Assembly: GCA_902775355.1 (NCBI GenBank)
Contig: CACYLY010000063.1
Coordinates: 374 to 36,631, forward strand
Direction of reading: 5' to 3'
Length of the DNA: 36,258 bases
Source: Oscillospiraceae bacterium
GTDB lineage: Bacteria > Bacillota > Clostridia > Oscillospirales > Oscillospiraceae
The notes under the pieces were generated by a model. It worked only from the letters and a program-made list of their open reading frames with translations, made no database searches and was not told the DNA's origin. Position numbers and translations under genes: made by a program. Positions 8,305-36,014 of the stretch are shown piece after piece. The number at the start of each line of letters is the position of its first letter. Within the stretch, counting starts at the first letter, position 1.

Positions 8305-9276
8305 TCAATACAGGCTGCCGGAATTGACCACCGGCTGGGCGTCCCGGTTTCCGCAGAGCACCACCAGGAGGTTGGAGACCATGGCGGCCTTCCGCTCCTC
8401 GTCCAGCTCCACGGTGTGGTTCTCGCTGAGCCGCTCCAGGGCCATCTCCCGCTGCAGCATGACCGCCGCGATCTCCGGCGCGTAGGCCAGGTAGGTGATG
8501 CGGGCCTCGATGACTTCGATGCCGGCCTCCTGGACCTTCTGCTGGATCTCGTCCCGGATGCGCTGGGCCACCAGCTCGCTGGAGCCCCGGAGGCTGCCCT
8601 CGTCCGCCACGCCGTCGCCGGTGGTGTCCACCCCGGGGGCCACGTCATAGGGGTAGATGCGCACGATGTTGCGCACCGCGCTGTCGCACTGCAGAGACAG
8701 GTATTCCTTGTAGTTGTCCACGTTGAAGACGGCCTTGGCGGTGTCCACCACCTTCCAGATCACGGCGATGCCGATCTCCACGGGGTTGCCCAGGCAGTCG
8801 TTGATCTTCTGCCGGGAGTTGGAGAGGGTCATGGCCTTCAGGGAGATCTTCTTGTTGGTCAGCTCCGCGTTCTGGGCCGAGCCTGCCAGCAGCACGTTCA
8901 GGGTGCTGTTGGCGGCGCTGCCGCCGTCCACGTCCCCGGACTGGTTCAGCTTGGTCTTGGCCGCCGGGTTCACGCCCACGCAGAAGGGATTGACATAGTA
9001 GAAGCCCTCCTCCTTCAGGGTGCCGATGTACTTGCCGAAGAGGGTGAGCACCAGGGCCTCCTGGGGCTTCAGGATCTTCAGGCCCAGGGCGGGGAGCCAG
9101 CCGATGGAGACCCAGATCACGCCGATCACGAACAGGGGGCCGCCCCAGGCCTGCCCCTTGTCGAAGCCGAAAATGCTGCCCACGACCATGAGAGCCACCG
9201 CCGCCAGATACAGCAGGACGATCAGCAGCAGCATGGACATGCCGTTTTTCTTGTTATTCAACACGATTTCTTTCAT
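8305..9276 (-). CDS. SPFH/band-7 domain membrane protein, apparently missing an internal block
   Basis: A 323-residue protein: two N-terminal hydrophobic segments (about 13-36 and 47-65), then an SPFH domain from about 67 ([20 protein letters not shown] ... GFYYVNPF) through [19 protein letters not shown], ending in the family tail [24 protein letters not shown] proteins form membrane-bound ring scaffolds. Oddity: MLQR is followed directly by EMALERL (junction at 8448/8449), whereas homologues I recall carry about 21 residues (QQASAIIDAR ... GAVGMV) in between; the frame is kept. The start at 9276 has GAAGGAGG upstream; the in-frame extension to 9336 would start upstream of the transcription start. 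Promoter at 9308-9336. Confidence 0.87.
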
Positions 9277-9297
9277 TTCTCGTGCCCTCCTTCGTTT

Positions 9298-9316
9298 TGA
9301 TATCAAAATGATATCA
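9298..9316. promoter_or_regulatory. Candidate operator: two TGATATCA palindromes, 11-bp spacing
   Basis: TGATATCA at 9298-9305 and 9309-9316 with a 3-base spacer. One box overlaps the -10 element and the other the predicted transcription start of the SPFH/RHH transcript. Two palindromic boxes one turn apart fit cooperative ribbon-helix-helix repressor binding. Confidence 0.65.
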
Positions 9317-9336
9317 CCGGGATATGGCTTTGTCAA
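9308..9336 (-). promoter_or_regulatory. Sigma-A promoter of the SPFH-RHH operon
   Basis: On the minus strand, TTGACA (9331-9336), a 17-base spacer, TATCAT (9308-9313). Perfect -35 and 5/6 -10; the start of transcription should be near 9300, about 25 bases before the SPFH ATG. Confidence 0.85.
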
Positions 9337-9435
9337 GGGCTTTGTGAAAAAAATTACAAAGAATCGTCAAGACCTGCGGCGACGCGCAGGCCTCCGCCCG
9401 CAGGGGAGGGGCTTGTGTTGCCCGCGGATACGGTA

Positions 9436-9501
9436 TAACCCCTTCCGTCACCCGGCTTGCGTGAGACGCCGGGCGACACCTCCCCCGGTGGGGGAGGCAA
9501 G
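9436..9501 (+). repeat. Two-hairpin intergenic repeat, copy at 9436
   Basis: TAACCCCTTCCGTCACCCGG, GTCACCCGGC...GCCGGGCGAC arm, then CTCCCCC/GGGGGAG and GGCAAG. Lies upstream of the SPFH promoter. Confidence 0.75.
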
Positions 9502-9654
9502 TACGTTCCGTCCGTCGCGTCTCGCGCCAACGCATCATTCCGCGCCGTAGGGGCTGGCGCCCTCGACAGCCCGCAATCTGTGCCAAGGTCTATTCTCTGC
9601 CGTAGGGGCGACCTCCGCTTCGCTCCGCCCTTGCGGTCGCCCGCGAAGGACGGT

Positions 9655-9720
9655 ACAAGCCCTCCGTCATCCGCCTCGCGGGGGATCGGCGGACGACACC
9701 CTCCGCCTTGCGGTACCCGG
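9655..9720 (+). repeat. Two-hairpin intergenic repeat, copy at 9655
   Basis: ACAAGCCCTCCGTCATCCGC, CCGCC...GGCGG arm, and a degenerate second hairpin (CCCTCCGCCTTGCGG) in place of the C-run/G-run pair. Confidence 0.65.
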
Positions 9721-9869
9721 AAAAATGTTCGCGCATTCGCTTGCTCCATTTTTCCGACCGCTGCGGAAATTGCGGCTTTGCTTCCTCTGCCACTGGCAGC
9801 GCAAAGCCGCAATTCCCCTTGCACAGGGGAGCTTGGATCGCGCCGGCGTTTCGACAGGGCCTCTGATAG

Positions 9870-9909
9870 GGCGCAGCCCCCGGGGACGGCTGTCCTCGGG
9901 GGCTGCGCC
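9870..9909 (-). terminator. Terminator-like hairpin after the Dabb gene
   Basis: A strong 12-bp stem GCGCAGCCCCCG (9871-9882) with CGGGGGCTGCGC (9897-9908), 11 bases past the stop of the minus-strand gene at 9920. No U tract follows, so it may be a 3' stabiliser rather than a classic terminator. Confidence 0.55.
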
Positions 9910-9919
9910 TGTCTTTCCT

Positions 9920-10207
9920 TCAATCTTCGTCGCAGTCGAAGATCGCTTTTTTCGCCACCAGGCCGCCGTATTCGGATTTCCAGCGCAGATGGGGCTCCGA
10001 GAGGTCATAGGCGGGCAGCGCCTCCTTGTCCATGTCCATGACGATCATCAGATCGAAGCGGTTCGGCCGGTCGGAATTGGACAGGCGGAGCTCAACGCTG
10101 CGGATCCCCGGGATGGACAGCGTCTGCTCAAAAATGCCGCGGATCGGCTTTTCCAGCGCGCGCCAGTCCGTCCCCTCCACAAACTTGACGATGATATAAT
10201 GCTTCAT
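9920..10207 (-). CDS. Dabb (stress-responsive alpha/beta barrel) family protein
   Basis: A 95-residue single-domain protein with the ferredoxin-like Dabb pattern: N-terminal strand MKHYIIVKF, a helix, strand GIRSVELRLSNSDRPNRFDLM, and the conserved YDLSEPHLRWKSEYG segment near the C-terminus. Dabb proteins are usually homodimers; the biochemical role of this clade is unknown. A strong ribosome site (AAGGAGG) lies 4 bases before the ATG. It is the last of three minus-strand genes after cysE and the YgjV-like gene, but a hairpin at 10262-10310 separates it from them and could reduce its expression. Confidence 0.83.
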   Translation of the reverse strand: MKHYIIVKFVEGTDWRALEKPIRGIFEQTLSIPGIRSVELRLSNSDRPNRFDLMIVMDMDKEALPAYDLSEPHLRWKSEYGGLVAKKAIFDCDED

Positions 10208-10261
10208 GCTTCCTCCTTCGCGGGCCGGGGAGGGCTCCCCGCCGCATTCTTTCCGATAAAC

Positions 10262-10310
10262 GGAGAAAGCCCGGAAGAGCGCGGCAAAGCCGCCCTTCCG
10301 GGTCTTCTCC
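10262..10310 (-). terminator. Terminator-like hairpin between the YgjV-like and Dabb genes
   Basis: Nearly perfect 16-bp arms (10262-10277 with 10295-10310) around an inner GCGGC/GCCGC stem, starting right after the stop of the gene at 10316. Ends in TTTCTCC on the minus strand; possibly a leaky terminator or mRNA boundary. Confidence 0.55.
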
Positions 10311-10315
10311 TTCGC

Positions 10316-10921
10316 TCAGAGCGCGCGCTCCCAGGCGCCGCCCTTCTGCTCGTAGCCCATCTTTTTCAGATAGCCCACGTGGCCCTCCTCCGCGTGCTCG
10401 TAGCGCAGCAGCTTCAGGCCCTCGTTGGGCAGGTGCTCCAGCAGGTAGCGGCCCTCGGAGCTGTCCCGATAGGTGGGGGTGCTGTAGTCCAGGGCGATGT
10501 CCAGCGCGCCCGCGGTCTCCTTGCCCAGCATGAGGCCCGCGGCCTCGTCCCCGTGGCAGACCAGGAAGGCCCGGTCCAGCGCGTTCTCGTCCCAGTTGCG
10601 GCCGGGGAAGCACTTGGCGATATCCTCCCGGTGCTCCAGCAGGAAGTGGCTCACGTAGCCGTCGGCGGGCCGCAGGCTCACCAGGCGGTAGTTGGGCTCG
10701 CTGTTGCGCAGCTTCCACAGATAGTAGAGGTTGATGAGCACCAGGCAGATGTTCATGATCATGGTGGGATAGGAGTGGATCAGCAGGGCGTAGGCGGCGA
10801 AGATGAAGCTGCCGATGCTGTTGACCACCCGCAGCTTCACCACTGAAGCCAACAGGAAGGAAACCAGCACCAGGGCCGAGCCCACGTAGCCGATGATCGC
10901 GTAAATTGTCGCGGTATCCAT
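10316..10921 (-). CDS. YgjV-like membrane protein with C-terminal acetyltransferase-like domain
   Basis: A 201-residue protein. Residues 1-70 contain three transmembrane helices (about 6-26, 31-48, 53-70) resembling YgjV inner-membrane proteins (GYVGSALVLVSFLLASVVKL, then NSIGSFIFAAYALLI). The soluble part (about 75-201) looks like a GNAT-type fold: LVCHGDEAAGLMLG, DIALDYSTPTYRD and the closing HVGYLKKMGYEQKGGAW, which recalls the final strand-helix of N-acetyltransferases. No acetyl-CoA P-loop (Q/RxxGxG/A) is clear, so activity is doubtful. GGGAG lies 7 bases before the ATG. It follows cysE by 36 bases. Confidence 0.72.
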   Translation of the reverse strand: MDTATIYAIIGYVGSALVLVSFLLASVVKLRVVNSIGSFIFAAYALLIHSYPTMIMNICLVLINLYYLWKLRNSEPNYRLVSLRPADGYVSHFLLEHREDIAKCFPGRNWDENALDRAFLVCHGDEAAGLMLGKETAGALDIALDYSTPTYRDSSEGRYLLEHLPNEGLKLLRYEHAEEGHVGYLKKMGYEQKGGAWERAL

Positions 10922-10957
10922 GCGTATTCTCCCTTTCGTATGTGATATTTGGTTTTC

Positions 10958-11626
10958 TCAGATGATCCAGCTGTCGGGCCGCTCCATCTCCAGCTCGCTC
11001 TCCCGCTTTTTCAGGCGGGCCAGCTCCTCCCGCAGGGCGGCCAGGTCCGAGGTGATGGGGTCGGGCACGTCGTGGACGTGGTCCACTTCCTTGACGTAGT
11101 TGATCTTCTCCCCGGCCAGGCGGACCACCCGGGCGGGAATGCCTACGGCGGTGCTGTTCTCGGGAATGTCCTGCAGCACCACGGAGTTGGCCGCCACGCG
11201 GCTGCCCGAGCCGATGGTGATGGGGCCCAGCACCTTGGCGCCGGTGCCGATGAGCACGTTGTTGCCGATGGTGGGGTGGCGCTTGCCGGTCTCCTTGCCG
11301 GTGCCGCCCAGGGTGACTCCGTGGTAGATCAGGCAGTCGTCCCCGATCTCGGCGGTCTCGCCGATGACCAGGCCCATGCCGTGGTCGATGACCAGGCGCT
11401 TGCCGATCTTCGCCCCCGGGTGGATCTCGATGCCGGTGCGGCGGCGGCTGGCCTGGGAGATCACCCGGGCCAGGAACAAAAGCCCATGGGTGTAGCACCA
11501 GTGGGCCCGACGGTGGCTGCGCACAGCTTTCAGGCCGGGGTAGAGCAGCAGCACCTCCAGCGCGGAGCGGGCGGCGGGGTCTCTGGCCTGATAGGCTTTG
11601 ACGGTATCCATCAAATCATGAAACAT
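10958..11626 (-). CDS. cysE: Serine O-acetyltransferase
   Basis: A 222-residue enzyme that acetylates L-serine with acetyl-CoA to O-acetylserine, the carbon acceptor for cysteine synthesis. An N-terminal helical part (DPAARSALEVLLLYPGLKAV, HRRAHW) leads into the left-handed beta-helix of hexapeptide repeats with the hallmark TGIEIHPGAKIG, DHGMGLVIGET and GVTLGGTGKETGKRHPTIG sequences; the catalytic His/Asp pair is in the DHGMG region. Residues about 185-222 form a charged coil. The size matches the short Firmicutes CysE/EpsC type. GGAAAGGAAG precedes the ATG, and a consensus promoter lies at 11725-11753. The first gene of a minus-strand transcript; no sulfur-assimilation genes are nearby. Confidence 0.96.
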   Translation of the reverse strand: MFHDLMDTVKAYQARDPAARSALEVLLLYPGLKAVRSHRRAHWCYTHGLLFLARVISQASRRRTGIEIHPGAKIGKRLVIDHGMGLVIGETAEIGDDCLIYHGVTLGGTGKETGKRHPTIGNNVLIGTGAKVLGPITIGSGSRVAANSVVLQDIPENSTAVGIPARVVRLAGEKINYVKEVDHVHDVPDPITSDLAALREELARLKKRESELEMERPDSWII

Positions 11627-11724
11627 GGCAAACTTCCTTTCCGTATCATCGTATGCGGAAAGGGCGACATCGGCGCGGAATGAAAAGCATGGCGTGACCT
11701 CGCTGCATCAAGGATCTTTACCGT

Positions 11725-11753
11725 ATTATAGTCCGGGCCGCGGAGACTGTCAA
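11725..11753 (-). promoter_or_regulatory. Consensus promoter of cysE
   Basis: On the minus strand, TTGACA (11748-11753), exactly 17 bases, TATAAT (11725-11730). A perfect match to the sigma-A consensus, leaving a roughly 90-base 5' UTR in which I see no T-box hallmarks. Confidence 0.92.
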
Positions 11754-11787
11754 CCGCAGAAAGCGGCGGTCCGGGCCATCGTTTGCC

Positions 11788-11816
11788 TTGCAAATGGTAA
11801 AAGCCGGTGCTATACT
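11788..11816 (+). promoter_or_regulatory. Promoter of the LRR gene cluster
   Basis: TTGCAA (11788-11793), 17 bases, TATACT (11811-11816); transcription should start near 11823. It is divergent from the cysE promoter, 35 bases away. It also shows that an upstream in-frame ATG at 11807 cannot be the translation start. Confidence 0.78.
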
Positions 11817-11860
11817 ATATTGGTAATACTATCAGAAGTATGCTCTGGGGGTACGGAACC

Positions 11861-13762: not shown

Positions 13763-13807
13763 TCCTGATCCGAGCGGCCCGGTCCGCTCGCGGATAAGAG
13801 GCGCGAT

Positions 13808-15484
13808 ATGCGAAAAGTCTGTTATATCTGGATAGCCCTCTGCCTGCTCCTGCTGCTGGCCGGCTGCGATCAGCTGCCGACGCCGGACTGGACTCCGCCC
13901 GCCTCCACGGCGGCAGGCCCCGCCCAGACCGGCGGGGACCGGGAGAGCGCGCCCGCCGGGGCGCCGGAGGGGGAGACGGCGGAGCCCGCCGCTCCCACGC
14001 CTGCGCCGGAGCCCCCCACGCCCTCGCCCAGCCCCGCTCCCGTCCGCTTCGCCGCCGGCGAGGCGAGCTGGGACAGCCGGGAGCTGACCCTGGTGCTGCA
14101 GGAGGGCGAGACGGCCCTGCTGGATCAGCTGCCGGAGCTGCAGCGGCTGGACGCCCGGGGCAGCGAATGCTGGGAGGAGCTGCTGACCTGGAGCGAGAGC
14201 CGCCCGGAGGTGGAGCTGCTCTATACCGTGACCCTGCCCGGCCTGGGGCCGGTGGAAGGGGAGACCGAGAGCCTGGATCTCACCGGCCTCGGCCCGGAGG
14301 AGATCCGGGAGGCCCTGCCGCGGCTGCGCTTTCTGCCGGGCCTGAAGGAGCTGAAGCTCCCCGCGGGGGAGGAGGGCGTGGATCTGGATACGGCCCTGGA
14401 GATCGCCGCGGCCCTGCCGGAAACGGTGATCGCCTATCCCTTTACCATCTACGGCCAGGAGGCCGACCTGTCGGACACCGAGCTGGTGCTTTTCCACCAG
14501 AAGGTCTATGACGAGGGCGAGGAGGTGCGCAGGGTGCTGCCCGCCATGCACGCCTGCACCTGGCTGGACATGGACAGCTGCGGGGTGGACAATGAGAACA
14601 TGGCCCGGATCCGGGACGAGAATCCCGATGTGGAGGTCATCTGGCGGGTCTGGTTCGGAGAAAACTACTCGGTCCGCACCAACGTGACCAAAATCCTGGC
14701 CTCCATGCCCTCCCAGGGCGGCCTGATCAAGGACAGCAACAGCGAGGGCCTCTATTACTGCACCAAGGTCCGCTATCTGGACCTGGGCCACAACCACAGC
14801 CTGAAAGATTTCAGCTTTGTGGAGAACATGCCGGATCTGGAGATCGCCGTGATCTCCATGGCCGATATCGACGATCTGAGCCCCTTCGCCTCCTGCAAAA
14901 AGCTCCTGTATCTGGAGATGGGCAACACCAATGTCAGCGATCTGAGCCCCCTGGCGGAGTGCACCAATCTCCGGCATCTGAACATCGGCACCAACATCGG
15001 CATCACCGACATCAGCCCCCTCTACGAGCTGCCGCTGCTGCGGCTGTGGATCGGCAACTACACCCCCATCCCCGAGGAGCAGGTGGAGAAGATGCAGGAG
15101 CTCCATCCGGACTGCGACATCAACACCACCGTGCCCTCCGGCCTGGAAAAGGACGAGAATGGCGGCGCCGCCAACGAGGGCTATACCATCCTCTGGAAGA
15201 GCTATTCCCTTCCCATGGACATGGGCAGCTACTGGATCGGCGCCCGGCCCATCGGCTATTACAAGGTGGTCTACAAGTGCTTTGACTACGGACACAATGT
15301 CCGGGCCTACGCCTTTGCCTGGAACGACCCTAAGTACACGGGCTTTGATCCCTATGTGGAGCCTGCCAACGTGACGGTGTGGGACACCTCCTTCCTGCTG
15401 GAGTACTGGAGGGACCCCCACTCCGACGAGCCGGATGATACGGACGGCCCGCCGGGCGAGGTTTTGTATCGATTCGAACATTGA
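13808..15484 (+). CDS. Leucine-rich-repeat lipoprotein 2
   Basis: 558 residues, second paralogue, 45 bases after the first. The signal peptide ends in a lipobox (LLLLLAGC, lipid Cys at about 20), so it should be anchored to the membrane and face outward. A Pro/Ala/Thr-rich stalk (about 25-78) precedes one cap module (LTLVLQEGETALLDQ), then the shared ACTWLDMDSCGVDNEN motif near 246, SVRTNVTKILASMPS, and LRRs at about 321-414 (YLDLGHN, IDDLSPF, VSDLSPLAECTNLRHLNIG, DISPLYEL). The C-terminal domain matches the first paralogue closely (PSGLEKDxxGGAANEGY, IGYYKVVYKCFDYG). Presumably co-transcribed with its neighbours; the spacer contains no terminator. Confidence 0.87.
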   Translation: MRKVCYIWIALCLLLLLAGCDQLPTPDWTPPASTAAGPAQTGGDRESAPAGAPEGETAEPAAPTPAPEPPTPSPSPAPVRFAAGEASWDSRELTLVLQEGETALLDQLPELQRLDARGSECWEELLTWSESRPEVELLYTVTLPGLGPVEGETESLDLTGLGPEEIREALPRLRFLPGLKELKLPAGEEGVDLDTALEIAAALPETVIAYPFTIYGQEADLSDTELVLFHQKVYDEGEEVRRVLPAMHACTWLDMDSCGVDNENMARIRDENPDVEVIWRVWFGENYSVRTNVTKILASMPSQGGLIKDSNSEGLYYCTKVRYLDLGHNHSLKDFSFVENMPDLEIAVISMADIDDLSPFASCKKLLYLEMGNTNVSDLSPLAECTNLRHLNIGTNIGITDISPLYELPLLRLWIGNYTPIPEEQVEKMQELHPDCDINTTVPSGLEKDENGGAANEGYTILWKSYSLPMDMGSYWIGARPIGYYKVVYKCFDYGHNVRAYAFAWNDPKYTGFDPYVEPANVTVWDTSFLLEYWRDPHSDEPDDTDGPPGEVLYRFEH

Positions 15485-15500
15485 GAGAAGGAGACTGACC

Positions 15501-17120
15501 ATGCGCACCAAACGCATCTGCATACAAGTTCTCTGCCTGCTGCTGCTCTTCAGCCTGCTGGCGGGCTGCAGCCGTATTACCCAGGAGGATCTGACCCCCG
15601 CTGTCGGCGGAGCGGAGCGGCCTGCCGGCGAGACAGCGGAAACCGCCGCTCCCGCCGAGCCGGACCCGGCCGCCCAGGGACAGAGTCCCGCCGCCGGGGA
15701 GCAGAATCCCGCCCCGGCGGAACAGGAGCCCCAGAGCGGGGAGCCGCAGTCCGCGGAAGGGGAGAGCTCCCCCGCGCCGGAGGAAGGCGGGGAGAGCGCG
15801 CCTGACGGCATCAGCCTGCCCGGCGGCGTCAAGCTGCCGGTGGCGGTCACCCTCAGCGGCGGGAGTTATCCCTCGGACACCAAGGAGCTGACGGCGGTGA
15901 TCACCGCGGCGGATATCCCCCTGCTGGAGAACTTCCCCCAGCTGGAGAAGGCCGACTTCAGCGGGAGCCGCTGCCAGAAGGAGCTGAGCGCCTGGGCCCT
16001 GGAGCACCCGGAGATCTCCGTGCGCTGCGAGGTCCGCCTGTCCGACGGGACTCTGATCCCCGCCGACACCCGAGAGCTGAAGCTCTCCGACGAGACGCCG
16101 GGGGAGGAGCTGCTGGCCCTGGTGCTGCTGCCGGAGCTGAAGACCGTGGACCTGGGCGAGTGCCTGGACGCCGCGGAGAGCCCCCTGGACTGGGAGGCCC
16201 TGGCAAAGGCCGAGGCCGCCTGCCCGAAGGCGGAATTTCATTACAGCTTTCACCTCTACAAAAAGAGCTTCGACCTGCAGAGCACCGAGATGGACCTGAA
16301 CCACATCACCATGACCGACGACGGCGCCCTGGTGAAGAAGGTGGCGGCCTGCCTGCCGGATCTGACCCTGCTGGACATGGACTTCTGCGATGTGGACAAC
16401 GAGCATATGGCCCAGATCCGGGATTCCCTGCCCAACACCGAGGTGGTGTGGCGGATCTGGTTCGGGGACAATCCCATCAGCGGCTATTCCGTGCGAACCA
16501 ACGTGACCAAGATCCTGGCCTCCAACCCGGGCATCGGCGGCGAGCTGACCCCGGAGAACACCGAGGCTCTGAAATACTGCACCAAGGTGAAATACCTGGA
16601 TCTGGGCCACAACGACCAGCTGACGGATCTGTCCTTTGTGCGCTACATGCCGGATCTGGAGGTGGCGGTGCTGGCCATGGGCGGCTTCCGGGACCTGAGC
16701 CCTCTGGCGGACTGCTCCAAGCTGGAGTATCTGGAGATCCAGACCGGAGCCATCAGCGACCTGCGTCCGCTGGCGAAGGTGAAGAGCCTGCGGCATCTGA
16801 ACGTGGCCTGGAACTACGCGCTGACGGATATCACACCCCTTTACGAGCTGACCGACCTGGAGCGGCTCTGGATCGGCGCCTTCGATCCGGTGCCCCGGGA
16901 GCAGATCGAGGAGATGCAGCGCCGGGCCCCCAACTGCCAGATCAATTTCACGACCAGGGACCCCACGGCGGAGGGCTGGCGCTATACCGAGTACAATGAG
17001 CTGGGCTACGGCGTGCCCCATCCCCGCTATGAGCTGCTGCGCCAGCAGTTCGACTACGGCAACGCCCCCTGGTGCTATTCCTACATCACCAACGACCCCC
17101 TGTACCGGAAACACGACTGA
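15501..17120 (+). CDS. Leucine-rich-repeat lipoprotein 3
   Basis: 539 residues, third paralogue, starting 16 bases after the second with a strong ribosome site (GAAGGAG). The lipobox LLAGC puts the lipid Cys at about 23. A Pro/Glu/Ala/Gln-rich stalk (about 28-105) is followed by a diverged cap module (ELTAVITAADIPLLENF), LLDMDFCDVDNEHMAQI near 289, SVRTNVTKILASNPG and LRRs at about 364-457. Its C-terminus is shorter and diverged: it keeps a CQINFTTRDPT strand but lacks the GGAANEGY block and the final 30 residues of the other two. Such divergence within a tandem family suggests different ligands or partners (inference). Confidence 0.87.
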   Translation: MRTKRICIQVLCLLLLFSLLAGCSRITQEDLTPAVGGAERPAGETAETAAPAEPDPAAQGQSPAAGEQNPAPAEQEPQSGEPQSAEGESSPAPEEGGESAPDGISLPGGVKLPVAVTLSGGSYPSDTKELTAVITAADIPLLENFPQLEKADFSGSRCQKELSAWALEHPEISVRCEVRLSDGTLIPADTRELKLSDETPGEELLALVLLPELKTVDLGECLDAAESPLDWEALAKAEAACPKAEFHYSFHLYKKSFDLQSTEMDLNHITMTDDGALVKKVAACLPDLTLLDMDFCDVDNEHMAQIRDSLPNTEVVWRIWFGDNPISGYSVRTNVTKILASNPGIGGELTPENTEALKYCTKVKYLDLGHNDQLTDLSFVRYMPDLEVAVLAMGGFRDLSPLADCSKLEYLEIQTGAISDLRPLAKVKSLRHLNVAWNYALTDITPLYELTDLERLWIGAFDPVPREQIEEMQRRAPNCQINFTTRDPTAEGWRYTEYNELGYGVPHPRYELLRQQFDYGNAPWCYSYITNDPLYRKHD

Positions 17121-17123
17121 TAG

Positions 17124-17166: not shown

Positions 17167-17175
17167 ATAGGGTTT

Positions 17176-19001: not shown

Positions 19002-19019
19002 GCCTGCGTCCGTTCCGCG

Positions 19020-19448: not shown

Positions 19449-20618
19449 CTACGGTTCGTCGTCGGCGCAGATCAGGCGGAAGGCGGAAGAGGAGAAGTCG
19501 TTGCCCTGAGCGACGGAGAGGGCCTCCCATTGGGCCCGGGTGCCGGTGAATTCCAGCCTGGTGAGGATGGCGCAGCGATAGAAGGCGTAGGGCTCGATGC
19601 TTTGGGCGCTGCCCGGGACCCGGACAGCCTGCAGGGCAAAGCAGTCATAGCACAGTCCCTCGGGGACCGCGGGCAGCCCCTCGGGCAGCTGAAGCTCCCG
19701 TAGGCAGACGCAGCCCCGGAAGGCATAGGCGCCGAGCTGCGACAGGCTCTCCGGCAACTCCGCGTCGCCCAGCCCGGTGCAGCCGAAAAAGGCGTAGCCG
19801 CCCAGCTCCGTCAGGCCCTGGGGCAGGACCGCCTCCGTCAGGCTGACGCAGTCGGCAAAGGCGTAGTCCCCGATGCTGCGCAGGCTCTCCGGCAGGCTCA
19901 GGACGCGGAGATTCATGCAGCCGCTGAAGGCGCTCGCCCCGATGCGCGTCAGCCCCTCCGGCAGGCGGAGCTCATAGAGCGGGATGCAGCGGGCAAAGGC
20001 GTAGTCCCCCACGGAGACCAGAGAGGCGGGCAGGGAGACCCGGCTCAGCTGCTCGCAGCCGTAGAAGGCGTTGGCCCCGATGGAGCGGACCCCCTCCTCC
20101 GCCACCAGCTGCTGCACGGCGTTGCCCCGCTGGATCCAGGGGGGCTGCCGGCGGGACTGGCCGTAGTCCGTCATGTCCCCCTGGCCGGAGATGGTCAGCA
20201 CACCCCGTTCCAGCCGCCAGAAGAGCCCGTCCTCCGTGACCTGAAAGCCCTCCGGCGGCTCCGGCAGCGGCGTGGGCTCGGGTGTGGGTTCCGGAGTAGG
20301 TTCCGGCGTGGGCTCGGGCGTGGGCTCCGGTGTGGGTTCCGGCGTGGGTTCCGGCGTGGGTTCCGGCGTTGGCTCCGGCGTCAGCGCGGGCGTGGGCTCG
20401 GGTGTGGCCTCCGGCGTGGGTTCGGGCAGAGGCTCCGGCGTGGGTTCGGGCGCGGGCGCGGCGCCGGGGCTGGGGACCGCGGGGGCTTGCATGGCCCCGG
20501 CGCCGCAGGCCGGAAGGCTCAGGAGCAGCAGCGCCGCCAGCAGGCACAAGACCCGGCGCGCCACGGGGGCGACAGCCCCGGCGGCGTTCCGAACAGCGCG
20601 GACGGTGCGGATCTTCAT
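19449..20618 (-). CDS. BspA-type (LRR_5) leucine-rich-repeat lipoprotein
   Basis: 389 residues. Signal peptide with lipobox LSLPAC (lipid Cys38), then a Pro/Glu/Thr linker (about 50-130) made largely of repeated Glu-Pro-Thr-Pro units, a short beta region ([20 protein letters not shown]) and about eight LRR_5 repeats from residue about 180 ([52 protein letters not shown]). BspA-like LRRs fold into a right-handed solenoid used for adhesion and host or matrix contact. The ATG at 20618 has AGGAGG 8 bases upstream. Unrelated in repeat type to the three internalin-like LRR proteins at 11861-17120, although all are surface proteins. Confidence 0.9.
20262..20450. repeat. Coding minisatellite in the lipoprotein linker
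   Basis: 12-base units (plus-strand pattern GGCGTGGGTTCC / GGTGTGGGCTCG) repeated about fifteen times encode the Glu-Pro-Thr-Pro linker. Multiples of 3 keep the frame, so slippage would change stalk length without breaking the protein. Confidence 0.85.
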
Positions 20619-20740: not shown

Positions 20741-22168
20741 TTATTTATGGAACAGCTTCTTGGCCTGGTAGCGGGGCTCGAAGGTGATGTTCACGCCGAT
20801 CTTTTTGAAGAGCTCCTCGTCCACCCGGGCGAGGATGACGCTGGAGTGGGCCTCGCAGCCCCGGAGCTTGTCCAGCTGGTCGATGGCGTAGCCCGCCATG
20901 GGGTTGGTGACCGCGCAGACGGACAGGGCGATCAGCAGCTCGTCGGTGTGCAGGCGGGGGTTGTGGTTGCCCAGGTGCTCCACCTCGATGCCGGCCAGAT
21001 GCTTCAGGGCGTTCATCAGGCAGGCGGAGGCGGCTCCCAGCAGGGGAGAGGTCTTGCCGGTGATGATGGTCCCGTCCGGCAGCTCCATGGCCATGGCGGG
21101 GGCGTCGGTTTCCTCGGCCCGCTGCAGGGCGGCGGCCACTACCGGCCGGTCCGCGGAGGAGAGGTCCAGAGAGTTCATGATCAGCTCGATCCTGCGCATT
21201 TCCGCCGAATCGCTGAGACCCTGGCGGACGGAGACGGCGGCGGCGTACCAGCGGCGGATGATCTCCTGCCTGGAGGCTTCCCGGCAGGCCTCATCGTCAC
21301 AGATGCACATGCCGACCATGTTTACGCCCATGTCCGTGGGGCTCTTGTAGGGGCTGACGCCGTAAATGCTCTTGAAAATGGCCTCCAGCACGGGGAAGAT
21401 CTCCACGTCCCGGTTGTAGTTGACGGTGGTGACCCCGTAGGCCTCCAGATGAAAGGGGTCGATCATGTTCACATCGTCCAGATCCGCGGTGGCGGCCTCG
21501 TAGGCCAGGTTCACCGGGTGCTTCAGGGGCAGGTTCCAGATGGGAAAGGTCTCGAACTTGGCATAGCCGGCGTTGACGCCCCGCTTGTGCTCGTGATAGA
21601 GCTGGCTGAGGCAGGTGGCCATCTTGCCGCTGCCGGGGCCGGGGGCGGTGACCACCACCAGGCGGCGCTCCGTCTCGATATAATCGTTTTTGCCGAAGCC
21701 CTCGTCCGAGACGATGAGGGGGACGTTGGAGGGATAGTCCGGGATGATGTAGTGCTTGTAGGTCCGGATACCCAGGACCTCCAGGCGCTTGATGAACTTG
21801 TCCGCCAGGGACTGGCCCCGGTAATGGGTCAGCACCACGCTGCCGATCATGAGGCCGATGCCCCGGAAGGCGTCGATGAGGCGCAGGGTGTCCTCGTCAT
21901 AGGTGATGCCCAGATCGCCCCGGCGCTTGGAGCGCTCGATATCGTCCGCCGAAATGGCGATGACGATCTCCGCCTCGTCCTTCATCTCCAGCAGCATCTT
22001 CACCTTGCTGTCCGGCTCGAAGCCCGGCAGCACCCGGGAGGCGTGATAATCGTCAAAAAGCTTGCCGCCGAATTCCAGATAGAGCTTGCCGAACTGGGAG
22101 ATCCGGTCCCGAATGTTCTGGGACTGGAGCTTTACGTATTTCGCGTTGTCAAAACCGAGACGGGTCAT
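20741..22168 (-). CDS. DUF1846 (UPF0371) family protein, apparently missing an internal block
   Basis: 475 residues. Strong family features: FDNAKYVKLQSQNIRDRI start, LYLEFGGKLFDDYHASRVLP, the phosphate-loop-like TAPGPGSGK at 174-182, AKFETFPIWNLPLKHPVNLA, DLDDVNMIDPFHLEAYG and the end HNPRLHTDELLIALSVCAVT ... KKLFHK. The function is not established; distant similarity to nucleotide-binding folds has been proposed. Oddity: ALKHLAGI joins EVEHLGNHNPRL directly (junction about 20986/20987), where homologues I recall have about 20 more residues (a PEVxxPIQxLK-type segment); the frame is intact. ATG 22168 is chosen for its GAGGGAGG site and because it lies downstream of the promoter at 22207-22235. 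Confidence 0.88.
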   Translation of the reverse strand: MTRLGFDNAKYVKLQSQNIRDRISQFGKLYLEFGGKLFDDYHASRVLPGFEPDSKVKMLLEMKDEAEIVIAISADDIERSKRRGDLGITYDEDTLRLIDAFRGIGLMIGSVVLTHYRGQSLADKFIKRLEVLGIRTYKHYIIPDYPSNVPLIVSDEGFGKNDYIETERRLVVVTAPGPGSGKMATCLSQLYHEHKRGVNAGYAKFETFPIWNLPLKHPVNLAYEAATADLDDVNMIDPFHLEAYGVTTVNYNRDVEIFPVLEAIFKSIYGVSPYKSPTDMGVNMVGMCICDDEACREASRQEIIRRWYAAAVSVRQGLSDSAEMRRIELIMNSLDLSSADRPVVAAALQRAEETDAPAMAMELPDGTIITGKTSPLLGAASACLMNALKHLAGIEVEHLGNHNPRLHTDELLIALSVCAVTNPMAGYAIDQLDKLRGCEAHSSVILARVDEELFKKIGVNITFEPRYQAKKLFHK

Positions 22169-22206
22169 GGCGGTCCCTCCCTCAAGTGTTTTCTTCACAA
22201 TCAGAC

Positions 22207-22235
22207 ATTGTAGCACAGAAGCCGCGGAGCGGCAA
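22207..22235 (-). promoter_or_regulatory. Promoter of the DUF1846 gene
   Basis: On the minus strand, TTGCCG (22230-22235), 17 bases, TACAAT (22207-22212) with an upstream TG making an extended -10. Transcription would start about 30 bases before the ATG. Confidence 0.7.
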
Positions 22236-22292
22236 GGGGATGGAAAATACAAAAATAGGGACCATAGACTTTTTTTCTTCATAATTATGTGC

Positions 22293-22323: not shown

Positions 22324-22643
22324 TCCAATTCGGAATTCGGAGTTCGGAATTGGAGGCAGAAGCGAGGCGGCGGAGGGGCCTTGCCTTCCCCCCGCAGGGG
22401 GAAGGTGGCGCGCAGCGCCGGATGAGGTCCCCGAGCGAAGCGAGGTCTGCCCGTCAACCGGCGCAAAGAGACCTCATCCGTCATCCGCCTCGCGGGGGAT
22501 CGGCGGATGCCACCTTCCCCGTGCGCGGGGAAGGCTTTGCGGGCGACCAAAGGTCGCCCCTACGGGGCGAAACGGGCCGCGCACGCACAGATCACGAACC
22601 ATTTATTCCGAATTCCGAACTCCGAATTCCGCATTCCGAATTA
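22324..22643. repeat. Composite intergenic repeat flanked by inverted GGAATTC-rich ends
   Basis: No gene. The left end (about 22324-22352) is rich in AATTCGGA/GAATTGG and the right end (about 22605-22643) carries the complementary AATTCCGAACTCCGAATTCC. Between them lie a minus-oriented two-hairpin repeat (about 22378-22432), a plus-oriented one (22471-22540) and a GGGCGACCAAAGGTCGCCCC hairpin (about 22540-22560). The structure resembles a nested MITE-like insertion. Confidence 0.65.
22471..22540 (+). repeat. Two-hairpin intergenic repeat, copy at 22471
   Basis: ACCTCATCCGTCATCCGCCT, CATCCGCC...GGCGGATG arm, then CCTTCCCC-GTGC...GGGGAAGG and GCTTTGC. Faces the minus-oriented copy at about 22378-22432 inside the composite element. 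Confidence 0.72.
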
Positions 22644-22683
22644 CCCCGGCGCCTGCGCCAATCTATACAGGAAGGAACACGAT

Positions 22684-25357
<2,674 letters not shown>

Positions 25358-25360
25358 GAG

Positions 25361-25450
25361 AACCCCTTCCGGCCTCGCCGCAAGCGGTTCGGCCACCTCC
25401 CCCAAAGGGGGAGGCAAGTGCCGGCCGGACCCTGCTCCCCCTTTGGGGAA
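25361..25450 (+). repeat. Variant two-hairpin repeat between secA and pgeF
   Basis: AACCCCTTCCGGCCTCGCCG, an arm GGCCTCG..CGGTTCGGCC, then CCTCCCCCAAAGGGGGAGG and GCAAG, followed by an inverted CTCCCCCTTTGGGGA segment. Begins three bases past the secA stop and may end that transcript. Confidence 0.65.
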
Positions 25451-25543
25451 GCGGCCGAAGGCTGATCGGGGGATTCGATCCGCCGCCGCGGATGAAAGGA
25501 GCATCCCTTCGTCAGAGAAGCGTTCTTATGTTGGAGATTTGAT

Positions 25544-26335: not shown

Positions 26336-26341
26336 AGAACC

Positions 26342-28012: not shown

Positions 28013-28042
28013 TACATATTATATATAAGGGAGAGAAGAATC

Positions 28043-28429
28043 ATGACGGACAGAGAATTGATGTCTATGGCCAAGGAGGCGTCCCTGAACGCCTACGTTC
28101 CCTATTCCCGCTTTTCTGTGGGCGCGGCCCTGGAGTGCATGGACGGGAAGGTCTTCACCGGCTGCAACGTGGAGAACGCCGCCCTGGGCGACACCATCTG
28201 CGCCGAGCGCACCGCCTGCGTCAAGGCCGTCAGCGAGGGCTACCGGGAGTTCCGCCGGATCGCCATCTACGCCGACAGCCAGAACTGGTGCACCCCCTGC
28301 GGCTCCTGCCGGCAGTTTTTGTCGGAGTTTGCCGGGGAGAACGACCTGGAGGTCCTGTGCGCCAAGGCCGGCGGCCGTTACGTGAGCTATAAGCTCTCGG
28401 AGCTGATGCCCCACACCTTCGGCTTCTGA
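28043..28429 (+). CDS. cdd: Cytidine deaminase
   Basis: 128 residues, the small tetrameric type. Converts cytidine and deoxycytidine to uridine forms in pyrimidine salvage. Zinc ligands Cys53, Cys86 and Cys89 and catalytic Glu55 are in TICAERTA and TPCGSCRQ; the substrate-binding N-terminal YVPYSRFSVGAAL and CNVENAA are intact. AAGGGAGAG precedes ATG 28043, 30 bases after the solute-binding gene. Only 3 bases separate its stop from the next gene. Confidence 0.96.
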   Translation: MTDRELMSMAKEASLNAYVPYSRFSVGAALECMDGKVFTGCNVENAALGDTICAERTACVKAVSEGYREFRRIAIYADSQNWCTPCGSCRQFLSEFAGENDLEVLCAKAGGRYVSYKLSELMPHTFGF

Positions 28430-28432
28430 GCC

Positions 28433-31131: not shown

Positions 31132-31154
31132 GGGCAGCCCGGACAAGCGGGATC

Positions 31155-31206
31155 AAAAAAGCTGTTCGGCGAATTCAACTGCGAATTCGTCGAACAGCTT
31201 TTTCGG
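31155..31206. terminator. Long bidirectional terminator between convergent genes
   Basis: A 21-bp stem with one G-T pair (31156-31176 with 31183-31203), loop AACTGC, bounded by A and T runs on both sides. Serves the plus-strand gene ending at 31131 and the minus-strand gene ending at 31250. Confidence 0.93.
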
Positions 31207-31249
31207 CTTTCGGTATGCGCTGCCGGGAAACAGCGGCCTTTGCGCCCGG

Positions 31250-32593
31250 TCAGGCCTTGCCGCCGGCAGATCCCGCGGGCGGAAGACCCTGGACTTCTTC
31301 CAAGCCGTAATAGTCTGCCAGGCTCCAGTTGGGCCAGATGCGGCTTTCCTCCATGTTCAGGTCGTCCAGCCCCAGGGCGGCGCTGTATCGGGTCGCGGGC
31401 TCATAGACCTCCAGGGCCACCTTGGTCTCCCCGGCGGCCAGCGCCTCGCGGATACGCGCCTCCCGGAGAAGAAAATGCCGGTGGATCACCAGGACATCCA
31501 GGGCGCCCAGGGAAAAGTTGAAGGCAAAGAGCACTGCAAGAGCGGCTGCCGTGAGCACGGGGAGAAGAGGACGGCGCAGCTCCAGCAGCGCGGAAAAGAG
31601 CAGCAGGCAGGCCAGAACCGTGAAAAAAACCGTAAAGCAGAAGTGCCTGGGCACAAAGTAGCTGGCGAAGAAGAAGGAGGCGAGGGAGCCCAGACCCGCC
31701 AGAAAGAGCACGGCGGAGAGGATCATGCGCCGCCGGTCGGCCCGAAGAAGGAGGCACAGGGCAAAGCACAGGGCAAAGAGAAAAAAGAGCGGGAGCAGCT
31801 GATCCCGGCAGAGATTCAGGATGTATTTGAAGTTTGCTGCCCAGGAGCTGAGATCCAGTCCGGCGGAGCGGCCGCGGGTCGCAGGAGCGGACATCAGGAA
31901 GCAGTAGCCCAGAACGCCCAGCAGCAGCCCCGCGGGGGCCTGCCAGGTCAGGCGCTTCTCCCGCAGCGCCGTGAGCAGGGTGAGGCAGAGGGCCGCAAAG
32001 AGCATGGCCAGGGAGCCGTTTTCCGAATAGGCGCCCACCAGAGGAGCGAAAAGCAGAAAGGCCAGATCCCGGAACAGGCTCTTCTTCCGCTCCCGTCCGA
32101 GAAAAGCCTCGGCATAGGGGAGGAGGAAGAGCAGGAAGAAAACCATGCCCCAGCCGTAGTTCACCGCGCCGTCCAGCCAGAGGACGACCTGACCGAAGGC
32201 GGGCAGCTCGTTAAAGAGCAGCAGGGCGCCCAGCAGCAGGAGAAGGAGGCGGCGCTTATCGTTTTCGGCCCGGGTATAGCGGGCGAAGAGGAGGAAGAGG
32301 AAGACGGCGAGGCAGGCGTTCAAAACACTGAAAACAGCCTTGGGCGCAAGCAGGATCAGCTGCACCAGGGCGTGAGCCACGACGCGGCCGTTGGTGAGCT
32401 GCCGGTGGACGGCCATGGAGGCCGGGATCTGCAGGGGGCTGGTGATCCGGCGGTTGTCTGCCCAGCTGAAGCAATAGGAATAGTCGTCCGCCAGCATGGG
32501 CGTCAGCGCGGTCAGCACCAGCATCACCAGAAAGACAGCCAGGTACAGAAAGACCAGCGCCCGAAAGGCAGGAGAGGATCGGAAGGCTTTCAT
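31250..32593 (-). CDS. Polytopic membrane protein (DUF6056-like), copy 2
   Basis: 447 residues, paralogue of the protein at 28433-29782 and nearly the same length. [48 protein letters not shown] and [13 protein letters not shown] align with copy 1 motif by motif. About 10-12 transmembrane helices. ATG 32593 is chosen (GAGGTG 5 bases upstream); a GTG two codons earlier overlaps that site. It is transcribed toward copy 1 and the PIG-V-like gene, so the locus holds three related envelope GT-C-like proteins. Confidence 0.78.
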
Positions 32594-32805
32594 GCGCACA
32601 CCTCTACACTAAGATTGCCCCCATGCTACCATATGCAGGGTGGAAAAGCAACGCAAAGGGGGAAATTTTGTGTTCCGGCCCGCATTTCCGCTTTTCCGCC
32701 CGGCGGACAGGGCGGCAAGAGGCGGCTTGTTACCGTTCTGCCACTATTTTTGTCGCCCTGCACAAAAACATCAAAAAAATTTCTCCGAAAACAACAAAAT
32801 TCTTC
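32594..32805. other. Divergent intergenic region upstream of the S10 operon
   Basis: 212 bases, no gene. The right half is strikingly AT-rich (CACAAAAACATCAAAAAAAT and AAAACAACAAAATTC), which may act as an UP element for the strong promoter at 32806. A moderate minus-strand promoter candidate is at 32623-32651. Confidence 0.5.
32623..32651 (-). promoter_or_regulatory. Possible promoter of DUF6056-like copy 2
   Basis: On the minus strand, TTGCTT (32646-32651), 17 bases, TAGCAT (32623-32628). Weak match to consensus but well placed, about 35 bases before the ATG. Confidence 0.4.
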
Positions 32806-32834
32806 TTGACATTCAGGGGATGGCCTGCTATACT
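32806..32834 (+). promoter_or_regulatory. Promoter of the S10 ribosomal protein operon
   Basis: TTGACA (32806-32811), 17 bases, TATACT (32829-32834), preceded by an A-rich tract. Start of transcription near 32841, leaving a leader of about 300 bases before rpsJ. Confidence 0.9.
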
Positions 32835-32840
32835 AACGAA

Positions 32841-33144
32841 GCGCCTGTGCGGAAAGCAGGGCGTATTATGCGAGGAAGCGGGAGATTGCTCGGGATTCCG
32901 AGGTAACTTCCGTGGAGTATGTCCGGTGTCGGAGGCATATCCGGCACGCAATCGGGCGGCTGAAACCTGTTTTTGTACACGCGTATATCGCGTGCACGGG
33001 GATCGACCGGCCATCTGGCCGGTTTTGTTTTTCGGACACGGCCTGATACGCACGGTTGTGTGTGCAAAAATTGTTTCATCCGTACGCATAAGGGAGGCGG
33101 ACCCAATGCCGCCGAAAAACGTACGAAAAAAGGAGAAATCACCC
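32841..33144 (+). promoter_or_regulatory. Structured S10 operon leader with terminator-like hairpin
   Basis: Three hairpins are readable: GTGTCGGA (32926-32933) with TCCGGCAC (32940-32947); GTACACGCG with CGCGTGCAC (about 32976-32998, one mismatch); and ACCGGCC-ATCT-GGCCGGT (about 33007-33024) followed by TTTGTTTTT, which has the form of an intrinsic terminator 120 bases before rpsJ. This suggests transcription attenuation. In E. coli L4 controls the S10 leader; no such link is established for this lineage and the structure here is different. Confidence 0.65.
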
Positions 33145-33459
33145 ATGGCAAGCAACAAGAACATGATCCGCATCCGCCTGAAGGCCTATGACCACCAGCT
33201 CATCGACAAGGCCGCCGAAACCATCGTGGAAGCCGCCAAGCGCACCGACGCCAAGGTCTCCGGCCCCATCCCCCTGCCCACCAAGACCGAGATCGTCACC
33301 ATCCTGCGCGCCGTTCATAAGTATAAGGACAGCCGCGAGCAGTTTGAGCGCCGCACCCACAAGCGCCTGATCGACATCATGAGCCCCACCCAGAAGACCG
33401 TGGAAGCCCTGATGAACCTGGAAGTCCCCGCCGGCGTGGAGATCGAGATCAAGCTCTAA
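33145..33459 (+). CDS. rpsJ: 30S ribosomal protein S10
   Basis: 104 residues, full length. [39 protein letters not shown], the [10 protein letters not shown] loop and [10 protein letters not shown] are typical S10; it sits in the 30S head and also acts as NusE in antitermination. AAAAGGAG lies 8 bases before ATG 33145; an upstream in-frame ATG at 33106 lacks a ribosome site. First gene of the operon. Confidence 0.97.
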
Positions 33460-33605
33460 GAGGCAGGGGAGCCAAAGAGGAAAAACCATTTCAATGACCC
33501 ATGGTCCGCAGCTTGCGAATGCGGACGGGTTAAGTTGCCAGCCTCTGGACGGGCGGACCACCCGGGCTAAGCGAGGCAACCAATAACCGAAGGAGGAAAT
33601 ACCAG
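33460..33605 (+). promoter_or_regulatory. Structured rpsJ-rplC spacer, possible cis-regulatory RNA
   Basis: 146 bases between two genes of an otherwise tightly packed operon. A 7-bp hairpin GTCCGCA (33504-33510) with TGCGGAC (33520-33526), and a larger stem GTTGCC (33534-33539) with GGCAAC (33575-33580) that competes with GCCTC (33541-33545)/GAGGC (33573-33577). No U tract. Ends with GAAGGAGG before rplC. Confidence 0.55.
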
Positions 33606-34256
33606 ATGAAGAAAGCCATCATTGGCAAGAAGGTCGGCATGACGCAGATCTTCGACGAGACGGGCAAGGTCATTCCCGTCACTGTCATCGAGGCTGGCCC
33701 CTGCACGGTGGTCGCCAAGATGAGCAAGGAAAAAGAGGGTTACGAGGCTGTTCAGTTCGGCTTTGAGGAAGTCGGCGAGAAGAAGCTCTCCAAGCCCGAG
33801 GCAGGCCACCTGAAGAAGGCCGGCGTTGCCGCAGTCAAGCACCTCAAGGAGTTCCGCCTGGAGGATACCGCAAAGTTTGAAGTGGGCGATACCGTCAAGG
33901 CCGACATTTTCGCCGAGGGCGACAAGGTCGACGTGACCGGCATCAGCAAGGGCCACGGCTACGCCGGCGTCATCAAGCGCTTCGGCCAGGGCCGCACCCC
34001 CACCAGCCACGGCGGCGGCCACATGGGCGTGGATCAGGTCACCGTGCAGAACCTGGACATCGTCAAGGTCGACGCCGAGCTGAACCTGATCGCCATCCGC
34101 GGCGCCGTTCCCGGCCCCAAGGGCAGCATCGTCTACATTAAGAATACTGTGAAGACCCAGCCCGTCAAGAAGGGCGAGGCCGCCGCAGTCAGCGTCAACC
34201 CGCAGAAGCAGTCCGCGCGTGTCAACCCGCAGAAGGCTTCCGCCCGTACCAAGTAA
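33606..34256 (+). CDS. rplC: 50S ribosomal protein L3, apparently missing its central loop
   Basis: 216 residues. N-terminal [40 protein letters not shown] and [18 protein letters not shown] are clear L3. Oddity: SHGGG is followed immediately by [12 protein letters not shown] (junction 34011-34022). Normal bacterial L3 carries about 26 residues here (RH..GSMG ... PGKKLPG), the extension that reaches toward the peptidyl transferase centre and contains the methylated Gln region. The frame is intact and a GGCC microhomology is possible at the joint. The C-terminus instead carries an unusual tail ([20 protein letters not shown]) with an internal VNPQK-x-SAR duplication. Confidence 0.93.
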
Positions 34257-34276
34257 AAGAAAGGAGAGCAGCATAA

Positions 34277-34900
34277 ATGCCTATTGCGAATCTGTTCAAT
34301 ATGGCTGGCGAGAAGATCGGCGAGATCGAGCTCTCCGAGGCCATCTTCGGCATCGAGCCGAACAAGAGCGTGCTGCATGATTCCGTCAAGAATCACCTGG
34401 CCAATTGCCGGCAGGGCACCCAGAGCGCTCTCACCAAGGGTGAGGTTTCCTACACCACCAAGAAGCCCTGGCGCCAGAAGGGCACCGGCCGCGCCCGCGC
34501 CGGCTACGCCGGCTCCCCCGTGTGGTACCACGGCGGCGTCGCTTTCGCCCCCAAGCCCCGGGATTACAGCTACCGCCTCAACAAGAAGGTCCGCCGCCTG
34601 GCTCTCAAGTCCGCCCTGTCCGCCAAGGCTCAGGAGAATGAGATCCTGGTCGTCGACGGCCTGAAGGTCGAGGAGATCAAGACCAAGCCCTTCCAGAGCT
34701 TCCTGACCAAGATCGGCGTGGAGGGCAAGGCCCTGGTCGTCACCGAGAATGTGGACGAGAAGGTCGTCAAGTCCGCCCGCAACATCGAGGGCGTCAGCAC
34801 CACCACCGCCACCATCCTCAGCCCCTATATGATTCTCACCAACGGCAAGATGGTCATCGACAAGGCCGCCCTTGCCAAGATCGAGGAGGTGTTCGCCTGA
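34277..34900 (+). CDS. rplD: 50S ribosomal protein L4
   Basis: 207 residues, full length. FGIEPNKSVLHD, the KKPWRQKGTGRARAGYAGSP loop that lines the exit tunnel, AFAPKPRDYSYRLNKKVRRL and the IEEVFA end are typical. The usual GGG before KPWRQKGTG is replaced by YTTK. A GGAG site precedes ATG 34277; the stop overlaps the rplW start (TGATG). Confidence 0.97.
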   Translation: MPIANLFNMAGEKIGEIELSEAIFGIEPNKSVLHDSVKNHLANCRQGTQSALTKGEVSYTTKKPWRQKGTGRARAGYAGSPVWYHGGVAFAPKPRDYSYRLNKKVRRLALKSALSAKAQENEILVVDGLKVEEIKTKPFQSFLTKIGVEGKALVVTENVDEKVVKSARNIEGVSTTTATILSPYMILTNGKMVIDKAALAKIEEVFA

Positions 34901-35196
34901 TGAAGACCGCATACGACGTTATCATCCGCCCCATCATCACCGAGCAGTCCATGGAAGACCTGGACATCAAGAAGTACGCGTTTGAGGTCGCCAAGGACGC
35001 GAACAAGATCGAGATCAAGAAGGCCATCGAGGAGATCTTCGGCGTGACCGTCGTCAAGGTCACTACCGAGAACGTGCGCGGCAAGGCCAAGCGCACCGGC
35101 GCTTACCCCATGGGCAAAACCGCTTCCTGGAAAAAGGCCGTCGTGAAGCTCAGTGCCGACTCCAAGAACATTGAGCTGTTCGAAGGCATGGCCTAA
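34900..35196 (+). CDS. rplW: 50S ribosomal protein L23
   Basis: 98 residues, full length. [36 protein letters not shown]-like [20 protein letters not shown] and WKKAVVKL are typical. L23 lines the exit of the peptide tunnel and docks trigger factor and SRP. Its ATG overlaps the rplD stop by one base, so it is translationally coupled. Confidence 0.97.
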
Positions 35197-35210
35197 GGGA
35201 GGGAAACAGA

Positions 35211-36014
35211 ATGTCTATCAAAACCTACAGACCGACTACCCCCGCCCGGCGCAACATGACCGTTTCCGGCTTCGACGGCGTCGATAAGCACGCCCGTCCC
35301 GAGAAGAGCCTGACCGAGGTCCTGAAGAAGAACGCCGGCCGCAACAGCTACGGCCACATCACCGTCCGCCACCAGGGCGGCGGCAACCGGCAGAAGTACC
35401 GCGTCATCGACTTCAAGCGCAACAAGCTGGACGTCGAGGGCAAGGTCCTCCGCCTGGAGTACGACCCCAACCGCAGCGCCTTCATCGCCCTGGTGGAGTA
35501 CACCGGCCTGAACGTGGGCGACACCGTCCTGGCGTCCCCCGCGGCCGACATCAAGGCCGGCAACGCCCTGCCCATGGCCAACATCCCCGTGGGCACCGTG
35601 ATCCACAACATCGAGCTCTACCCCGGCAAGGGCGCGCAGCTTGTCCGCAGCGCCGGCGTCGCCGCCCAGCTCATGGCCAAGGAGAACGGCATGGCCACCG
35701 TGCGTCTCCCCTCCGGCGAGATGCGCAAGGTCCGCCTGGAGTGCTACGCCACCATCGGCCAGGTCGGCAACATCGACCACGCCAACGTTCACATCGGCAA
35801 GGCCGGCCGCAAACGCCACATGGGCATCCGCCCCACGGTCCGCGGCTCCGTCATGAACCCCTGTGATCACCCCCACGGCGGCGGCGAGGGCAAGAGCCCT
35901 GTCGGCCGTCCCGGCCCCGTAACTCCTTGGGGCAAGCCCGCGCTGGGTTACAAGACCCGCAAGACGAAGAACAAGACCGATAAGTTCATCGTCAAGCGCC
36001 GCAACGCGAAGTAA
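35211..36014 (+). CDS. rplB: 50S ribosomal protein L2, apparently missing about 11 residues
   Basis: 267 residues against the usual 273-280. [73 protein letters not shown] (with the His critical for peptidyl transfer) and [12 protein letters not shown] are all typical. Oddity: ALVEY runs straight into TGLNVGDTV at 35500-35503, whereas nearly all bacterial L2 have a xDGExRYILAP segment between them, part of the RNA-binding domain. The deletion keeps the frame. AGGGAGG precedes ATG 35211. Confidence 0.95.

What the first reader, a model, noticed from the sequence alone, without database searches (positions are those of the whole stretch)
8305..36014. Five conserved genes each lack one block of family-conserved residues
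SPFH (about 21 residues at 8448), DUF1846 (about 20 at 20986), SecA (about 33 codons at 23674), L3 (about 26 at 34011) and L2 (about 11 at 35500) each read as two well-conserved halves joined with a middle block absent. Four joints preserve frame; secA does not. Two are core ribosomal proteins. Either the assembly systematically dropped 30-100 base segments, or the organism carries real deletions in essential genes. Neighbouring S10, L4, L23, CysE, Cdd and PgeF look complete, so the effect is not universal.
Basis: partly seen in the sequence, partly recalled or inferred. Interest (0 to 1): 0.85.

Follow-up and report, generated by a model that had tools for sequence, protein, structure and literature searches.

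The report
Assembly gaps mimicking gene deletions
Five conserved genes in this draft genome of an uncultured gut bacterium do lack a short internal block, but every relative compared has the blocks and the joins look like assembly errors, so this is most likely not biology.

Summary
In detail: SPFH, DUF1846, SecA, L3 and L2 lack 63, 54, 98, 78 and 33 bases. Each block is present in every fetched relative with both flanks aligned: 8/8, 10/10, 11/11, 20/20, 20/20 genomes. The source is a draft metagenome assembly of 92 contigs, 87.5% complete. No second copy of DUF1846, secA, L3 or L2 was found in it. Joins are blunt, microhomology at chance against the nearest sister. Four further blocks are missing at one place on contig C2. 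Three of the nine losses break frame. This assembly shows 9 losses in 91 kb, sister assemblies 6 in 354 kb, one of them at a 7-N gap. Without the window the figure is 4 in 73 kb, one cluster. Eight of nine joins lie in the 23% of alignable sequence at least 90% identical to a sister. Elsewhere this assembly has an NNN between two identical 65-base copies, an error described for IDBA-UD and CLC assemblies (PMC7111523, passages). Best reading: local scaffolding errors. Raw reads would settle it; none were available.

The parts
8305..9336 (-). SPFH/Band_7 gene with a 21-codon block missing
   Evidence: Pfam Band_7; 63 bp absent; present in 8 of 8 relatives and 80 of 80 named loci
8449..8450 (.). 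blunt join in the SPFH gene (63 bp absent)
   Evidence: 7 of 7 sister loci placed, microhomology 0-1
20741..22282 (-). DUF1846 gene with an 18-codon block missing in DUF1846_C
   Evidence: Pfam PF08903 and PF20921; 54 bp absent; present in 10 of 10 relatives
20984..20986 (.). join in the DUF1846 gene (54 bp absent)
   Evidence: 9 of 9 sister loci placed; microhomology 1 against the nearest sister, up to 6 against others
22507..23674 (+). 5' part of secA up to the join (the open frame runs on out of frame to 24165)
   Evidence: SecA_DEAD and SecA_PP_bind; SecA models match up to residue 389 of the open frame
23674..23675 (.). blunt join in secA (98 bp absent, frame lost)
   Evidence: 11 of 11 sister loci, microhomology 0 in the seven rows printed; present in 11 of 11 relatives
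23675..25357 (+). 3' part of secA after the join (first ATG of this frame at 23741)
   Evidence: P-loop_SecA and SecA_SW
33606..34256 (+). rplC (L3) with a 26-codon block missing
   Evidence: TIGR03625; 78 bp absent; present in 20 of 20 relatives
34016..34020 (.). join in rplC (78 bp absent)
   Evidence: 19 of 19 sister loci placed; microhomology 1 against the nearest sister, up to 7 in the rows printed
35211..36014 (+). rplB (L2) with an 11-codon block missing
   Evidence: TIGR01171; 33 bp absent; present in 20 of 20 relatives
35503..35505 (.). join in rplB (33 bp absent)
   Evidence: 16 of 16 sister loci placed; microhomology 1 against the nearest sister, up to 5 in the rows printed

Best explanation
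The five short genes are local assembly (scaffolding) errors in a metagenome-assembled genome. Inferred mechanism: where genes are nearly identical between co-occurring related species, the short-read assembly graph breaks into short contigs; read pairs link neighbouring contigs; the pieces are then placed end to end without the 30-110 bases between them. The living organism most likely has full-length genes. Shown here: exact losses not shared by any relative compared, blunt joins, more losses than in sister assemblies, concentration in stretches very close to sister species, and one likely scaffold-gap error elsewhere in the assembly. Inferred: the graph-break step and which program did it.
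For: Draft assembly, 92 contigs, 87.5% complete. Blocks present in all fetched relatives with both flanks and, for SPFH, in 80 of 80 named loci. Searching the genome with the sister region for DUF1846, secA, L3 and L2 gave no second copy and no hit on the missing blocks (40 of 374 first-look candidates were scored; one 35-base match on C11 to another part of the DUF1846 stretch): with secA frame-broken, the sequence taken literally leaves the cell without an intact SecA. Microhomology against the G036 sister sums to 8 over nine joins, 7.8 expected, P=0.50. Three of nine losses break frame (98, 53, 50 bp). Rate 9 in 91.1 kb against 6 in 354.5 kb in 93 sister loci, one of the six at a 7-N gap in the same SPFH gene of G016. 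Identity to the best of four sisters is 0.895 or more at all nine joins; 8 of 9 lie in 23.1 kb at 90% or more, 0 in 59.8 kb at 60-85%. NNN between identical 65-bp copies on C67, a pattern described for IDBA-UD and CLC assemblies in PMC7111523 (passages). Remaining parts of the five genes: dN/dS 0.12-0.29 against G036.
Against: No raw reads, no second assembly. No N at the joins. The excess rests partly on the window, which was chosen for its losses; without it G000 has 4 in 73.5 kb, all within 1 kb of C2. Six of nine losses are multiples of three (binomial P about 0.04, my arithmetic), four of five in the window. The missing blocks are not the most conserved part of their genes (percentiles 0.25-0.88). 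Against other sisters some joins show microhomology up to 7. The assembler of this genome is not known.
Confidence: 0.95

Rival explanations
1. Real deletions in the living organism, in essential genes, recently fixed or in a decaying lineage.
For: The sequence as deposited shows them; 6 of 9 losses are in frame.
Against: secA loses its frame and no other copy was found; the L3 and L2 blocks are kept in 20 of 20 relatives; microhomology at chance against the nearest sister; two of four C2 losses also break frame; remaining parts show purifying selection. The assembly is incomplete, so absence of a second copy is not final.
Confidence: 0.03
2. Short forms typical of the clade or family, misread as deletions.
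For: None found.
Against: The fetched relatives with both flanks (for L3 and L2: 19 same-genus genomes and one of the same order) all carry the blocks; 80 of 80 named SPFH loci do.
Confidence: 0.005
3. Deletions made in a sub-population or in library DNA by slippage between short repeats or at hairpins, and assembled faithfully.
For: Sizes are plausible.
Against: Microhomology at chance against the nearest sister. Would not explain the concentration in sequence close to sister species. Hairpins were not tested.
Confidence: 0.015

Closest known systems
Local assembly errors at scaffold joins in metagenome-assembled genomes (Chen et al. 2020, PMC7111523; passages seen)
   Same: Wrong local sequence at joins, incomplete genes in public records, and Ns inserted despite overlapping flanks (a likely case seen here on C67)
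   Different: The passages shown (12 of 16 places) do not describe blunt joins without N that lose 30-110 bases; their diagnostic, lack of read support, could not be tested
Scaffold gap with N in a sister assembly (G016:C42, SPFH gene)
   Same: Same gene, bases missing at a join
   Different: Carries 7 explicit Ns; the window carries none

Membership tests
local assembly error in a metagenome assembly | loss seen in one assembly and not in relatives | tested here: met
local assembly error in a metagenome assembly | join not supported by reads | not testable with these tools
   no reads available
local assembly error in a metagenome assembly | scaffold-gap errors elsewhere in the same assembly | tested here: inconclusive
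   one NNN between identical 65-bp copies on C67, the only short N run in 285 kb sampled of 2.86 Mb; a true tandem copy cannot be excluded
local assembly error in a metagenome assembly | Ns at the joins themselves (usual, not required) | tested here: not met
   window holds no N
deletion between short direct repeats | microhomology at the join above chance | tested here: not met
   against G036: 8 observed, 7.8 expected over nine joins; other sisters give 0-7 per join, not tested statistically
selected in-frame shortening of proteins | frame kept at all joins | tested here: not met
   98, 53 and 50 bp break frame; 6 of 9 do keep it
clade-specific short protein form | shared by close relatives | tested here: not met
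   block missing in 0 of 8, 0 of 10, 0 of 11, 0 of 20 and 0 of 20 relatives

The most novel reading that the evidence does not exclude
The organism truly carries blunt internal deletions in secA, rplC and rplB, and either lives with shortened ribosomal proteins and a split SecA or is a lineage in rapid decay.
Probability: 0.02. Interest if true: 0.85.

Novelty: not a real feature. Interest (0 to 1): 0.07.

Why it matters
Only as a caution: in draft metagenome genomes, conserved genes close to those of sister species can lose 30-110 bases at joins with no N to mark it. Gene trees, deletion screens and essential-gene claims built on such records can mislead. Comparing with sister genomes exposes it quickly.

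Tried and rejected
Conserved-block trigger: I expected each missing block to be the most conserved stretch of its gene. They are not (percentiles 0.88, 0.38, 0.88, 0.73, 0.62, 0.25, 0.40, 0.38, 0.76); only the surrounding 400 bp is unusually close to a sister. Direct-repeat deletion: no excess of microhomology against the nearest sister. A rescue copy elsewhere: none found for DUF1846, secA, L3 and L2 (SPFH was not in that query). Mirror error, unmerged duplications: one window-specific extra stretch near 8304; perfect tandem duplications in four sampled stretches were not followed up. PMC6785717 (passages only) mentions one rumen genome from IDBA_ud and co-assemblies with MEGAHIT; whether this genome belongs to that set is unknown. 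Two paper searches were read as listings only.

Dropped before counting: L207 (C17) was searched but aligned mostly in short pieces; no sister stretches were fetched for it and it is not in the 91 kb. Of the 20 stretches, five (L204, L205, L206, L212, L218) are in the count; L218 was picked because it holds the NNN. Event rule: 15 bp or more, 80% or more of covering genomes, two or more covering genomes. Earlier runs: cover of three or more gave 3 events in 178 kb of sisters against 5 in the window; one search gave 2 in 86 kb of the second set of sister loci.

Full report
What was checked. The window is bases 374-36631, up to the end, of contig C63 in a 2.86-Mb, 92-contig draft genome, 87.5% complete. 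The best two SPFH matches are metagenome-assembled genomes, an Oscillospiraceae bacterium from goat omasum and an uncultured Clostridiales named RUG166. Same-genus sister genomes, up to 94% identical over the L3-L2 region, were found and matching stretches fetched.

In each of the five genes the two halves match sisters closely and a block is absent at a sharp point: SPFH 63 bp, DUF1846 54 bp, secA 98 bp, L3 78 bp, L2 33 bp. Every sister locus placed by the anchor test gave the same length: 7 of 7, 9 of 9, 11 of 11, 19 of 19 and 16 of 16. At protein level the block is present in 8 of 8, 10 of 10, 11 of 11, 20 of 20 and 20 of 20 genomes with both flanks; one more genome lacked a DUF1846 flank. 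The L3 and L2 set is 19 same-genus genomes and one of the same order. The raw alignment count for L2 was lower (19 of 20, 16 of 20), which I take to be the aligner splitting the 33-base gap; one search found the block in all 20. The best 80 named SPFH loci, of 585 or more, all carry the 21-residue block.

It is rare in sister assemblies. With one rule (loss of 15 bp or more against at least 80% of covering genomes, at least two of them), the window plus five stretches of other contigs give 9 losses in 91,137 alignable bases; 93 sister loci give 6 in 354,474. The window was chosen for its losses. Without it the figure is 4 in 73,476, all within 1 kb at the start of C2: 53, 50, 39 and 111 bp (113 against one of four sisters), in an FAD-dependent oxidoreductase-like gene and the gene after it (the name is my reading, no family search was run). 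Four other stretches (L205, L206, L212, L218; 59 kb) show none. So the effect is patchy, and nine is not nine independent events.

The joins look technical. Microhomology against the G036 sister is 0, 1, 0, 1, 1, 0, 0, 2 and 3 bases; random placement gives the same total (8 against 7.8, P=0.50). Against other sisters single joins reach up to 7. Three of nine losses break frame. Against this reading, six of nine are multiples of three, more than the three expected (P about 0.04, own arithmetic). The rest of each of the five genes is under purifying selection (dN/dS 0.12-0.29).

Where they fall. Using the same four sisters for all six stretches, eight of nine joins lie in the 23.1 kb at least 90% identical to a sister over 400 bp, one in the 19.3 kb at 85-90%, none in 59.8 kb at 60-85%. 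The blocks themselves are not more conserved than their surroundings. This fits assembly graphs breaking up where related species in one sample share near-identical sequence; that step is inference.

Scaffold traces nearby. On C67 of the same assembly an NNN is flanked by two identical 65-base copies. Chen et al. 2020 (PMC7111523, passages) describe Ns inserted despite overlapping flanks, seen by them in IDBA-UD and CLC assemblies, and suspect that local assembly errors are prominent in IDBA-UD output. In sister G016 the same SPFH gene carries a 7-N gap with bases missing. The other sister events (G030 three, G033 one, G034 one of 90 bp) may be the same error at a lower rate; they were not examined further.

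No rescue found. Searching the genome with the sister region for DUF1846, secA, L3 and L2 returned this contig for those genes, repeats elsewhere, one 35-base match on C11 to another part of the DUF1846 stretch, and no hit on the missing blocks (40 of 374 first-look candidates scored). Taken literally the cell would have no intact SecA, which is essential in bacteria (established knowledge). The genome is incomplete, so this is supporting, not decisive.

Verdict. Raw reads would settle it.

Noticed in passing
window 22382-22577, 25360-25475, 9657-9835, 20249-20456: Stretches matching many dispersed copies in sister genomes, mainly G021 and G036: repeat families of the genus.
   Followed up: no
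L218 7401-7403 (G000:C67): NNN flanked by two identical 65-base copies: likely unmerged contig overlap, or a true repeat.
   Followed up: partly
L218 16735-16864; ends of several G021 contigs: A repeat of about 130 bp with 19 longer matches (about 94 bp or more) listed in G021, and shorter pieces of about 50-60 bp at several G021 contig ends.
   Followed up: no
L204 592-1590 (G000:C2): Four more blocks missing (53, 50, 39, 111 bp) in two adjacent redox-like genes; two break frame.
   Followed up: yes
L186 4172 (G034); L179 3394, L237 4590, L275 331 (G030); L239 1399 (G033): Genome-specific losses in sister assemblies at a lower rate.
   Followed up: no
window 13808-17120: Two neighbouring large frames with leucine-rich repeat (LRR_4) matches.
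   Followed up: no
window 8304: About 17-23 extra bases beside the SPFH stop codon relative to 7 of 8 sisters.
   Followed up: no
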